23,806 nucleotides of DNA. Origin: Ectocarpus siliculosus (Eukaryota; Sar; Phaeophyceae; Ectocarpales; Ectocarpaceae). The stretch is taken from NCBI GenBank assembly GCA_000310025.1, contig FN648069.1, forward strand, positions 281,012-304,817. Reading direction: 5' to 3'. A model generated the notes under the pieces. That model saw only the letters and a program-made list of their open reading frames with translations, searched no databases and was not told the DNA's origin. The position numbers and the translations under genes were made by a program. Each line of letters begins with the position of its first letter. Within the stretch, counting starts at the first letter, position 1. Shown here in pieces: positions 8,130 to 23,552 of this stretch.

Positions 8130-11100
8130 CTACTGCAAGAAGAAAGCTATAATAGTCGCTAACCTCCACACCTTGGCGTCTCCTCTCTCCGAAGCTGAAG
8201 TCGTCATGGCGGACGTGATGGGTTGGCTTGGCGTCTCCTCTGAGCAAGCCGGGGTTCCGCACTCCGCCGTTTCGAGCTCATCAACGTCGACCTCACGCCC
8301 GTCTAATCTTATCGCCGTCGTTCCTGTCGAATGTTTGTCGGTGCCACCACCGGGAACATCATCGGCCCCTTGGGCAGCTGCGGCGCCCTGACTTTGGAGC
8401 CCACGTTCGTTCGCCTTGAGCGGGATTATGGCGAGCAGGGCCAAGCGCATCTTACCCACCATACAGCAGATAGATATGATGGTGAGCGTCCATCGCGCGT
8501 GCGGCGGCAAGTGGTCGCTGCTGAACAGGTGGTATGTCACGATGCAAGCAACGAACTCCACGAGGGTCAGCACGAGTCCTGCTCCGAACGCACGCGTCCC
8601 GTCCAGGATGGAGTCAATGAACGGCATGGCCACGATTCTCACCCGAAACCTAAAGCCCATCGTAGCTTCTCCCGAATAGGCCGCAGCCCAAACCACGAGA
8701 CACCGGCTGATCCAGAGGTAGGGTAGCACCAGGAAAAACCACTTCCGTAACACTAGTGCGATCATTGTCAGGGGCACAAAGCGACTAACGATCTCTAGGA
8801 CATGGTACAAGAAGCAGAACCACACATGAGTACGCGGGTGCACCCAACCCATCCTCCCCGCTAGTCTCGAAACGCCTTTCTCCGGCACCCGACTAAACAC
8901 TAGTGCCGTTACAGAAGGACAATCTGGGCACATTCTGAACCTCTCTGTGCCACCTTCCCCAGAAAGACGGGTGTTCAGCAGTCTCTCGACACTGGAAACG
9001 TCGGTAGCCGCATACGCCAGGCTTACCGTCGAGATGCACACGGAAATCACGCGCCCATTCAAGTCGCTGTTCGACAATGATGTCTCGCTCCAAAGCAGCA
9101 GCATCGCGTACAACTGGAGCAGCAGCTGGGGTACTGACTCGAACAGTGGCTCGATGACGCGCACAAGGGCTAAGACAGGGGAGTACGTACGCGACGCCGC
9201 AGAAAATACGGCTTCTAGCAGCAAGCTCAACTGAGTCGCTACCAAGAACCGACGACCGCAAGTGAATTCGGGGAGAAAGAAAGCGGACACGATCACTGCC
9301 GGACCGAGGGCGAAAGCAACCACAAGCACAAACCAAAATAAGTGGCCTGAATTGTAGTAGGAAACCGCAGTGTAGAGATCTGAAGCCAAGTCTAGGTACC
9401 CAAGGGCAACAGGAACGATCAAAATCTTGACTGCGTGGCCAGCGTCATTGACATGAGGAAGCGGGGGTCCGTCCATAGCGCGTCCTACTATGAACTTCTT
9501 GAAGCGCGGGTGCTCCGCCAGCCGCTTCGGGATCTCGCCTCCTGTATGAAAACCGGACAGGGTGTCAGCTTTGCGCTCGCCATACCCCTTGGGTACTTGT
9601 CAGAGGAGTTGCGAAGCTTAACCACGTCTTCTGAAGAGTTCCATGTTCATGTTCATGTTTCAATGATTGGAAATGATATGGGTAACCCATCAACAACATC
9701 GTCTCTGTTTGCTGTTCGACACCCGCTCTGAAACGGGCACGATGAGCTCACCGCTCAGCGGGTTCGAAGAAAGATTCAGGTGCTCCAGAGACCACAGGTT
9801 GCCCAGCTGCGGTGGAATAGGCCCTGCGGCAGGTTCATGTGCATGTCGAGGAGTACGTGAGTCGCCAGCCGAAAACATTGTCGGATGCGAAGGAATGAGA
9901 ATGCAGTGCGAGCCCGTGGTTTGTACCTCGAGAAGATAACTATTGCGGTGGGATTTTCGTCGCTTTACGTGACTCAACAACAAAAACAAATTGATAATAA
10001 TGTGTTCCAGCGCTCACCGCAAAGCTCATTGTTGGAGAGGTCGAGCCACGTCAGATTGTTCAGCGAGCCGAGAGCACCAGGAATTACACCTGCGTGAACA
10101 AGAAATCGATCAATCGTGAACGACAATACATCATGAATTTGTGGTGGTTGTGTAAGGTTGAGGTTGTAATCGAAGCCTACTCGAATAGTTGTTTCCACTG
10201 CGAGACGACCAACGAACCAGGTGGTGCTTGCTTCGAATTGAAAGCTTGCTTGTAGTGCCCCACCCACGCATCGGACGGAACAACGAGAAAAAACGATTCT
10301 TGGGACGTCCTGCCACATTGAGTTATCGACGCGGCTTACACCTGCCAGGAGTTCGATTTGGAAACCACTCAACTAAGTAAATCATCTTCTCAAGAGTAAT
10401 GGACTGATTCCCCCCCCCCCAAAAAGGCAGAATCCCAATCCCGGGTAGCGCAGATATTTCTTGAAAGGCCATCTCGGACATGCAGGGTTAATCGTTAAGA
10501 ATGCTAATCTCACCGTCCAGCTGATTGTTCCACATGGAGAGGATTGTCAGGGCACCAAGATTTCCGAGCTCCGGGGGAATAGGGCCTGCACGTTGGGGAA
10601 AACAACAGGTATGCTCCTCGCTCAACCGTGTCTAGGTCTAGAACATCATACTCCCGGTACTCTTTGGACTCGACCAATTCATGTAATAATGGCGAACGCC
10701 TGACATTCGTTCCACGAAAAATGCAACCACCACCGAGGCATGGTGAGTGCTCTCTGGTTGTTGAGCAGCAGCATGTGAATGAGATTGGAGAAAACACGAT
10801 GATGCCCCTTCCCACACATCCCGACCGATTCCCTAAAAAAACTTGTTGTTCGGTACTGTGGAGACCACCTTCATAAAGGTAGAAACTCCCCAACGTCTGT
10901 CGAGGACGATTCCCTCTTTTCACAATGGCGTCGACATAAGATGTCAGGGTGTCTGCTTTTGGTTGCAAAAGACACGGGTTCAAAAACCGCTGGTCACCAA
11001 ATTTTCTTCCGGAAAACGGAAAAAGAAAAACGGTGGGTGGGCCAAGGGAGGACGCACTGGCTATCGAACTCGGAACTTCTGTAAACGTGGCGGACGTAGC

Positions 11101-12782
11101 GAATCCGTAAAACACGTACAGAAGATTGTGAGGAATGTGAATCGCCCCGCCGCCAGCCGGTCGGGTTCCGGTTACCCCAAGAAGACTTCTCTTGCCTGGA
11201 AAACAAGAAAAAGTCTCGAAAAAAAAGGGGGGGGTAATGTGGAGACCACCTTCATAAAGGTAGAAACTCCCCAACGTCTGTCGAGGACGATTCCCTCTTT
11301 TCACAGTACTACTGCACTAGTTTGCGTCAAGTGTGTCATCCACACCACCAGTAGCTCGGGACGGGGTAGTAGAGCTTCAACACCCGGGTATTGAAGCTCC
11401 ATACGTGTCTCTTGTGGCTACGCAGCGATGTGTGTCGCGTCAACCTTTATTTCTTCAGCGTCAACTATCATTCCGTTCTTCGAACTCTTGATGACTTACA
11501 CCTTTATCCACACTACACCTTCCTCACCTTCCACCAGTACTCTCAAGTCCCACAGATGGCCGCGAAGAAGCGGAAATTACCAAGGAAAGCATGTAGCGGC
11601 GCTGTGTTGCTGCTCTCACGGATGACTGCTCTTGTTTGCCCTCCACTGTCAAAATATCTACGGTGTCGTCACAAATATCCCGCAAAAAACGCTAAACGTC
11701 GCCCTGGTACACCTATGTAAGTCCTGGTGGCTGGGTGGTATACCTACCACTCACCCGGAAACCCGGCGACAAGAAAAAACACTTCCCTAGTACCTTCTTG
11801 AACCAAGGGCTCCATGACTAACGACCTCGATATCGTACTGCAATATGCATATGCAACGCTCGCTCGCATGATATCACCTCGCGCTAGACAAAAACATCAT
11901 TCTCCTTCTTGTTTCTGGGCTCACCCATCAGCTGGTTGTTCGAGAGGATGAGTACTGTCAGGACACTAAGCGTTCCTAGCCTGGGCGGGATAAAACCTGT
12001 TTGATTCGCAAAAAAAGTACTCGAGTAAGCGTTTCGAAGAGGGAGAGTAGGTCCGACAAAATACTTCACACCTGCGTGACGTGTTCGGCGCACGTGATTT
12101 CCCTCGCATCTCAAGGCCGAATATATGTGTCGATTTGCAAGATGTATGTATGTGTAACTACCGCAGGCAATTAGTGGGGGTTCGTTGTCACCCAAACAAT
12201 GCGGGATCTATGGGCATGGTTACGATTGGCGACAGCGAGCGGGTATCAGACAGAGAAGGCGCGCCTGCTGTGTCCGTACGCAAGTAGTCCATGGGTTCTA
12301 GAGTAACAACAAGTGGACGATCCATCACATACAGCAGTAGTAGCAGTTCCCCCGCGAACAAAAATACCTCGGAGGTTGTTGCTTCCTAGCTCCAGCCGCT
12401 CAACGCGGCGCTCATCATTTGCTTGAACCCCATACCACGACCCAATATGATAGTCTGTGTCCCAGTGTGCGCCTGCCCTCCAACGGCTGCCGGTCCACTG
12501 AGAAAGGGCGGCAAGTGCCTTACGATCCGTCTCTGCTTCAAAGGAAACATTAACATTTGTGACATCCAAAACGGGGCGAAGCTGAGTAGAGCAAGAACAG
12601 ACCGGCTGTTGCTCTGGAAGAATTACCTCGCAGGTCCCAAACATCTGCTGCTGCTGTGTATTGCTCGAGAAAAATAGTAGTTTTCTGATCTGGTTACCAG
12701 GTAATGGCGCGGACACGTGTGTGTTGGTATTTATGTTCTCCAGTACGAGTATTTCCGCTTGTGGTGTGGTCTCTCCCGCCAT
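8130..12782 (-). CDS. LRR protein fused to an XK-related (XKR) membrane domain
   Basis: Exons: 12782-12368, 11996-11925, 10585-10514, 10089-10018, 9823-9752 and 9541-8130. Every junction splits a Gly codon after its first base. The joined frame is 2115 bases, 704 residues. Residues about 84-138 form an N-terminal LRR cap (DRKALAALSQWTG, then WDTDYHIGSWYGV) leading into the first repeat (VERLELGSNNLRG). Residues 139-234 are four 24-residue repeats of the type GPIPPELGNLxxLxxLxLxxNxLx. The last exon starts GEIPKRLAEHPRFKKF and stays open into about nine hydrophobic segments from residue 257. It has the XKR features GYLDLASDLYTAVSYYNSG and EPLFESVPQLLLQLY (about 365-379). The C-terminal tail is polar. 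Animal XKR proteins include lipid scramblases. No signal peptide is seen, so the LRRs are probably cytosolic (inference). The ATG at 12644 is an alternative start, and a TATATTAA-like box lies just 5' of the ATG at 12782. Two separate genes remain possible, but no stop or promoter separates the parts. Confidence 0.78.
10857..10924 (+). repeat. Left LTR of the TRIM-like element
   Basis: A 68-bp direct repeat, identical by eye to 11238-11305, beginning TGTGGAGACCACC and ending TTCCCTCTTTTCACA. Confidence 0.9.
11238..11305 (+). repeat. Right LTR of the TRIM-like element
   Basis: A 68-bp direct repeat, identical by eye to 10857-10924. It is preceded by the purine tract and followed by the GTAC target duplication. 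Confidence 0.9.

Positions 12783-16255: not shown

Positions 16256-23552
<7,297 letters not shown>

What the first reader, a model, noticed from the sequence alone, without database searches (positions are those of the whole stretch)
8130..12782. LRR recognition module fused to an XKR-type membrane module
The last LRR exon stays open from GEIPKRLAEHPRF directly into a nine-segment membrane domain with XK-related hallmarks (DLASDLYTAVSYY; EPLFESVPQLLLQLY). All six exons agree in phase, giving one 704-codon frame. Known brown algal LRR families are LRR-GTPases (ROCO), and TPR repeats play the recognition role in the NB-ARC family. I know of no described LRR-XKR receptor. Some animal XKR proteins scramble lipids during cell death, so a sensor joined to a membrane effector, possibly for defence or programmed death, is conceivable. 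That role is inference.
Basis: partly seen in the sequence, partly recalled or inferred. Interest (0 to 1): 0.85.

Follow-up and report, generated by a model that had tools for sequence, protein, structure and literature searches.

The report
Algal sensor fused to lipid scramblase
In a brown alga, a repeat-based recognition domain of the kind suspected to act in algal immunity is joined in one gene to a membrane domain related to the animal proteins that scramble membrane lipids in dying cells, and the genome holds at least four such genes; what they do is untested.

Summary
On the minus strand, six exons (12782-8130) splice in one phase into a 704-codon frame: N-terminal cap, four 72-bp LRR exons, and one long exon that starts with half an LRR and runs into a membrane domain. 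Pfam assigns the membrane domain to XK-related PF09815 (53 bits, cut-off 24.8); its reversed sequence matches nothing. The host genome (189 Mb, brown-algal by its EsV-1-7 expansion) holds seven XKR loci. Four, the window's included, have same-strand LRR exons upstream (4, 7, 12 and at least 6) and an unbroken XKR module. The module is under purifying selection in the three tested. Of five XKR8 scrambling-path positions that I could align, four are invariant in all four modules. The cap also heads 9 Roc-GTPase loci, so one front end serves two back ends. Of 30 caps examined, 28 have a Met at their start, which leaves no room for a signal peptide and puts the LRR in the cytosol. Best reading: a cytosolic LRR sensor that gates its own scramblase, perhaps for defence or cell death. 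Architecture is well supported; function is inference. My searches found no description of LRR-XKR.

The parts
12368..12782 (-). Exon 1: 84-codon N-terminal extension of uncertain status, then the LRR N-terminal cap (ETDRKALAALSQWTG...NNLRG; cap about 12533-12368)
   Evidence: frame, GT donor; cap match 1.2e-12 to the C477 cap; extension has no clear coding signal
11925..11996 (-). LRR exon 1, 72 bp, FIPPRLGTLSVLTVLILSNNQLM
10514..10585 (-). LRR exon 2, 72 bp, PIPPELGNLGALTILSMWNNQLD
10018..10089 (-). LRR exon 3, 72 bp, VIPGALGSLNNLTWLDLSNNELC
9752..9823 (-). LRR exon 4, 72 bp, PIPPQLGNLWSLEHLNLSSNPLS
8130..9541 (-). Exon 6: terminal half-LRR (GEIPKRLAEHPRF), XK-related membrane domain, C-terminal tail, stop. 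Tandem acceptor 9541/9538
   Evidence: PF09815 5e-15 for this exon alone
9378..9392 (-). Two Asp codons (P0001 D50, D54) in the first membrane segment, aligned with Asp 21 and 25 of the XKR9 chain, taken as counterparts of XKR8 D26/D30
   Evidence: HMMER alignment to 7P14; invariant in 4 of 4 modules; role in XKR8 from PMC8500837; codons checked
9138..9161 (-). Arg and two Glu codons (P0001 R127, E130, E134), aligned with R135/E138/E142 of the XKR9 chain, taken as counterparts of XKR8 R/K134, E137, E141
   Evidence: R127 and E130 invariant in 4 of 4, E134 in 3 of 4 (Gln in C16); codons checked
8130..8429 (-). C-terminal tail after the last membrane segment, probably cytosolic; its 3' end is uncertain

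Best explanation
This is one gene of a small brown-algal family that fuses an intracellular LRR recognition domain, built from single-repeat 72-bp exons, to an XK-related lipid-scramblase-type membrane domain. Shown here: the fused frame, the family membership of both halves, recurrence in four genes, constraint on the membrane half, and preserved scrambling-path residues. Inferred: the LRR lies in the cytosol, because family members start at the cap without a signal peptide and animal XKR proteins have a cytosolic N-terminus (recalled). It holds the XKR module inactive until it meets a ligand, or a modified host protein. Binding then opens the lipid path, phosphatidylserine and other lipids cross the plasma membrane, and this marks or kills the infected or damaged cell. 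Sensor and membrane effector would thus be one molecule, replacing the caspase cleavage or phosphorylation step that switches animal XKR8. Likelihoods: fused LRR-XKR gene family 0.95; membrane module can scramble lipids 0.55; LRR gates it in response to a ligand 0.45; defence or cell-death role 0.35.
For: Frame and splice phase. PF09815 above cut-off in 4 of 4 modules and no other Pfam family in any at E up to 1; reversed control empty (its letters checked). Rat XKR9 is the only PDB sequence returned, though weakly (E 0.09). Four LRR-XKR genes with the same fusion point at a half-LRR. Purifying selection on the XKR exon, omega 0.27-0.38 for the three pairs of three genes. XKR8 path residues D26, D30, K/R134, E137, E141 are needed for scrambling (PMC8500837, passages); the aligned positions are kept in 3 of 3 close members, and four of the five in the distant C16 copy. 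Met at the cap start in 28 of 30 caps examined. The same cap heads 9 Roc loci; LRR-ROCO proteins are candidate immune receptors according to PMC11378527. In the C8 gene's duplicated LRR exons, exposed beta-strand positions have pN 0.397 against 0.088 elsewhere; 7 of 33,649 five-position sets reach this.
Against: No expression, structure or function data. The PDB match is not significant on its own, and the best-scoring stretches against PF09815 all lie within positions 3-183 of 337, so the C-terminal half is little supported. The single-sequence AlphaFold model failed (pLDDT 42.9). On the exposed LRR positions pN/pS is 0.96, which is relaxed or diversifying but not above 1, and the pairs are not independent. 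The C16 copy has Gln for one path Glu. In liposomes, purified rat XKR9 gave no strong evidence of scrambling (PMC8298096, passages).
Confidence: 0.5

Rival explanations
1. The LRR is a docking or targeting module and the XKR domain works in ordinary lipid traffic, for example as a scramblase partner of a VPS13-type lipid transfer protein. There is no ligand sensing and no defence role.
For: XK lacks the caspase site and associates with VPS13A (PMC10938166, passages). LRRs are general binding modules. Purifying selection on the membrane half fits housekeeping as well.
Against: LRR number varies from 4 to 12 and exposed LRR positions change fast in the C8 gene, which fits a variable recognition surface better than a fixed docking site. 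The cap is shared with Roc-bearing loci.
Confidence: 0.27
2. The membrane module descends from XKR but is not a scramblase. It acts as a membrane anchor, channel or transporter under LRR control.
For: Homology is clear only in the N-terminal half of PF09815, and no study of XKR outside animals appeared in the listings that I saw.
Against: The conserved part is the one that holds the acidic scrambling path, and four of its five aligned positions are invariant.
Confidence: 0.2
3. The window copy is a decaying member. The family is real, but this gene has lost its start and perhaps its C-terminus.
For: The cap is the longest branch of the tree and has no Met where 28 of 30 other caps have one; the N-terminal extension and tail show no clear coding signal. 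Three other XKR loci in the genome are broken or partial.
Against: All six exons are open, five of five introns are canonical, the 469-codon last exon has no stop, and window-C8 omega is 0.27. An upstream ATG keeps the frame open.
Confidence: 0.15
4. LRR exons and the XKR exon belong to two neighbouring genes and are joined only by model building.
For: No transcript evidence is available.
Against: Half an LRR is encoded in the same exon as the membrane domain in all four members, and LRR exons precede it on the same strand in all four; the whole frame was assembled in three of the four.
Confidence: 0.03

Closest known systems
Animal XK-related scramblases (XKR8, XKR9; Pfam PF09815)
   Same: Pfam membership above cut-off; aligned first-segment Asp pair and R..E...E motif of the scrambling path; C-terminal tail after the last segment
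   Different: Carries an N-terminal LRR domain, which animal XKR8 and XKR9 lack (recalled); a caspase site was not looked for; found in a brown alga; C-terminal half is diverged
Brown algal LRR-ROCO GTPases
   Same: Same N-terminal cap ahead of Roc at 9 loci of this genome; 72-bp single-LRR exons in one phase, as described in PMC11378527
   Different: Roc-COR GTPase is replaced by a multi-pass XKR membrane domain; PMC11378527 reports LRR-ROC-COR as the only ROCO domain order and says that most of 15 other shuffling-LRR-exon sequences in S. japonica contain only LRR motifs
Plant LRR receptor-like kinases
   Same: Plant-type LRR consensus; best PDB sequence matches are LRR receptor kinases
   Different: No signal peptide in the family members with a Met at the cap, no kinase in the Pfam scan, a multi-pass membrane domain instead of one segment
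NLR resistosomes (recalled, no call)
   Same: Working analogy only: LRR-controlled intracellular sensor whose output acts on the plasma membrane
   Different: No NB-ARC domain in the Pfam scan; the effector would be a built-in scramblase rather than an oligomeric pore

Membership tests
XK-related family (PF09815) | Score above the curated Pfam cut-off | tested here: met
   55.7, 53.3, 57.9 and 51.5 bits against 24.8, 4 of 4 modules; reversed window sequence 0 families at E up to 10
XK-related family (PF09815) | Conserved acidic cluster of the N-terminal domain (XKR8 D26, D30, E137, E141) | tested here: met
   D50, D54, E130 in 4 of 4, E134 in 3 of 4; roles from PMC8500837
XK-related family (PF09815) | Two four-helix repeats, eight membrane-spanning segments | tested here: inconclusive
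   Hydropathy shows overlapping stretches; structure prediction failed; best-scoring Pfam stretches lie in the N-terminal half of the model
XK-related family (PF09815) | Lipid scrambling switched by the C-terminal tail | not testable with these tools
   Needs a cell assay. Tail sequences differ among the members
Brown algal shuffling-LRR-exon genes | One LRR per 72-bp exon, all in one phase | tested here: met
   4 internal exons in the window, 7 in C477, 12 in C8, spliced frames open. The scan looked only for 72-bp units, so exons of other lengths would have been missed; in C16 one place holds two adjoining LRRs
Brown algal LRR-ROCO | ROC-COR GTPase after the LRR | tested here: not met
   No Roc or COR in the Pfam scan of the model; XKR is in its place
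Candidate immune receptor | Exposed LRR positions evolve faster than scaffold positions | tested here: inconclusive
   Met in the C8 relative, pN/pS 0.96, pairs not independent; not tested in the window gene
Candidate immune receptor | Induced by, or required against, a pathogen | not testable with these tools
   No expression data

The most novel reading that the evidence does not exclude
Brown algae evolved a one-piece intracellular immune receptor in which an exon-shuffled LRR sensor directly opens a built-in lipid scramblase, coupling recognition to phosphatidylserine exposure or cell death without caspases; the same interchangeable LRR front end is mounted on GTPase (ROCO) or scramblase (XKR) back ends.
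Probability: 0.3. Interest if true: 0.92.

Novelty: new variant of a known kind. Interest (0 to 1): 0.74.

Why it matters
Brown algae have no animal caspases and no plant NB-LRR proteins (recalled), and how they recognise pathogens and kill infected cells is open. A receptor that carries its own scramblase would give a direct, testable route from recognition to membrane change. It would also take XKR scramblases, known to me only from work on animals, into a distant multicellular lineage in a new regulatory setting. The shared front end of Roc and XKR genes suggests a modular receptor kit.

Tried and rejected
Structure: AlphaFold on exon 6 alone gave pLDDT 42.9 and was not used for fold search. 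An alignment with relatives was not submitted, because structure prediction states that it does not take sequences from genome-search loci.

Public collections: no relatives in viral contigs or in the prokaryote genomes of genome contigs. Those scans rest on two exact peptide patterns each and hold no algal genomes by design, so they say little about other algae. Other brown algae could not be searched.

NCBIfam gave only a chance-level row for exon 6.

Shuffling of caps between the ROCO and XKR families: the C477 cap is closest to caps not known to head XKR (up to 81%), but the AU test does not reject one XKR clade (p 0.241), so I do not claim it. An earlier tree is void: I had translated part of the loci on the wrong strand. 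One search stopped on an error after leaving out three rows that failed my filter; all 30 are.

COR models found one place each and were too insensitive; Roc was used instead.

C-terminal plug: I464, F467, L468 of exon 6 have the spacing of XKR9 I367, F370, L371 (PMC8298096). The relatives lack this and the tail may read into an intron; a search for a conserved downstream exon in C8 and C477 found none. Left as a curiosity.

C30:3453615, C30:3382337 and C476:197267 carry XKR remnants with stops or missing parts; no LRR exon passed the scan at two of them, and one degenerate LRR without an AG acceptor lies at C30:3380420. They were not counted as genes. Codon-bias scoring of both ends of the model was inconclusive.
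Full report
What is there. On the minus strand of the window, six open segments with canonical GT...AG introns splice into one 704-codon frame. Exon 1 carries a cap (ETDRKALAALSQWTG...W...NNLRG). Four exons of exactly 72 bp each encode one plant-type LRR, and every junction splits a codon after its first base. The last exon (9541-8130) begins with half an LRR (GEIPKRLAEHPRF) and runs without a stop into a membrane domain of about 350 residues and a tail. Since half an LRR and the membrane domain share one exon, the core of the fusion does not rest on splice prediction. The acceptor is a tandem CAGGAG (sequence); the site at 9538 would give the usual LRR register and 703 residues.

What the parts are. 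Pfam gives LRR_1 (2.4e-17) and XK-related PF09815 (3.1e-14, 53.2 bits against a cut-off of 24.8) for the model. Reversed exon 6 matches no family at E up to 10 (letters checked). A profile of three or four family members returns one PDB sequence, rat XKR9 (7P14/7P16), at E 0.09: the only row, but weak. The best-scoring stretches against the Pfam model lie within its positions 3-183 of 337; the C-terminal half is little supported.

Host. The genome holding the window has 189,456,909 bases in 492 contigs. The first look for the EsV-1-7 motif gave 880 candidates, of which 150 were scored and all 150 listed are over the cut-off. That this motif is expanded in brown algae is recalled. No tool names the species.

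The family. PF09815 finds five XKR loci in this genome and the exon-6 protein seven. I count four as genes with LRR exons on the same strand upstream of an XKR module with no stop: the window (4 LRR exons); C477:30772-18485 (cap, 7 LRR exons, one with a GC donor, 639 aa); C8:1176239-1158801 (cap, 12 LRR exons, 867 aa); and C16 (XKR in three exons joined at GT...AG sites that I chose by eye; six LRR exons with both splice signals and two further repeats in the scan). The scan asked for 72-bp units, so LRR exons of other lengths would be missed. The other three loci are broken or partial. All four XKR modules start with a half-LRR GxIP. Identity of the module to the window's is 57% (C8), 55% (C477) and 35% (C16), so the fusion is probably older than the split of these copies. 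Nei-Gojobori omega over the last exon is 0.27, 0.38 and 0.38 for the three pairs of C476, C8 and C477: purifying selection, with dS of 0.9-1.4; C16 was not included.

Functional residues. In XKR8, mutation of D26, D30, K134, E137, E141 and R183 markedly reduces scrambling (PMC8500837, passages read). HMMER aligns D21/D25 and R135/E138/E142 of the XKR9 chain with D50/D54 and R127/E130/E134 of exon 6. The XKR9-to-XKR8 correspondence is my reading of the shared motif and was not computed. D50, D54, R127 and E130 are invariant in 4 of 4 modules; E134 is Gln in C16. R183 could not be placed.

Topology. In 28 of 30 caps examined (the best 30 of 66 listed) a Met stands within two residues of the start of the match, so these proteins start at the cap with no room for a signal peptide. 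The 45 residues of exon 6 up to the first membrane segment hold seven Lys or Arg. Animal XKR proteins have a cytosolic N-terminus (recalled). The LRR is therefore most likely cytosolic. The window's own cap lacks that Met and is the most diverged of the 31 in the tree; its upstream extension has no clear coding signal.

One front end, two back ends. The search with the C477 cap lists 66 caps (a lower bound). Within 20 kb downstream on the same strand, 9 of 66 have a Roc GTPase domain (of 54 Roc places, 53 over the cut-off) and 3 of 66 an XKR domain. On the opposite strand there are none, and upstream there is one Roc place, which also lies downstream of a neighbouring cap. Whether COR follows Roc at these nine loci was not seen: the COR models found one place each, elsewhere. 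PMC11378527 (passages and section 15 read) describes the 72-bp LRR exons in brown algal ROCO genes, gives LRR-ROC-COR as their only domain order, and mentions 15 other sequences with such exons in S. japonica, most with LRRs only.

Signs of recognition. In the C8 gene, LRR exons come in blocks (EIP, HIP, PIP types) that repeat with their introns (aligned pieces 67-86% identical). Among these copies the five exposed beta-strand positions have pN 0.397 and pS 0.414, and all other positions pN 0.088 and pS 0.296. Of 33,649 five-position sets, 7 reach the exposed value; among non-scaffold positions, 6 of 1,287. Leaving out one divergent copy gives 24 of 33,649 and 15 of 1,287. The pairs are not independent, and a ratio of 0.96 does not prove positive selection. 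The window's LRRs were not tested this way.

How it may work. XKR8 is kept inactive by its C-terminal tail and is switched on by caspase cleavage or phosphorylation (PMC10938166, abstract and passages). I propose that in LRR-XKR proteins the cytosolic LRR takes over this control: ligand binding frees the lipid path, lipids scramble, and the cell is marked or dies. The architecture is shown; scrambling, gating and purpose are inferred, with the likelihoods stated above. The main rival is a docking LRR on a lipid-traffic scramblase.

Novelty. Searches for XK-related with brown alga and LRR, XKR with stramenopile and XK-related with Ectocarpus found no paper. XK-related with scramblase, evolution and LRR found two and XK-related with alga six; the titles and abstract starts listed name no such protein, and I did not open these papers. 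Two broad searches were seen only in their first ten rows. Only open-licence papers are held, so prior mention elsewhere, or in database annotation, cannot be excluded. Both domains are known; the combination, the family and its shared front end appear new.

Noticed in passing
window 10852-10924 and 11233-11305: Two 73-bp direct repeats, 99% identical, 381 bp apart start to start, inside the intron between LRR exons 1 and 2; they look like the ends of a short inserted element.
   Followed up: no
C8:1174839-1163351: LRR exons of the C8 LRR-XKR gene form repeated blocks of EIP, HIP and PIP types together with their introns, a visible trace of repeat-number growth.
   Followed up: partly
66 places in G000, list: At least 66 LRR caps; nine have Roc and three have XKR within 20 kb downstream.
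   Followed up: partly
just upstream of many caps, e.g. C477:30787-30773: Eight of 30 caps read QVP*A in the five codons before the Met, and three more differ by one letter, a conserved stretch that looks like a 3' splice site plus a short leader.
   Followed up: no
window 16259-16621, minus: Weak FATC-like end of a possible PI3K-like kinase (19.6 bits, below the cut-off of 25.3).
   Followed up: no
window 8130-8147, minus: The last residues of the frame (I464, F467, L468 of exon 6) have the residue spacing of the inhibitory C-terminus of XKR9; the relatives lack it, so it may be chance or intron read-through.
   Followed up: partly
C30:3453615-3454028, C30:3382337-3383500, C476:197267-197449: Broken or partial XKR copies, suggesting turnover of the family.
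   Followed up: partly
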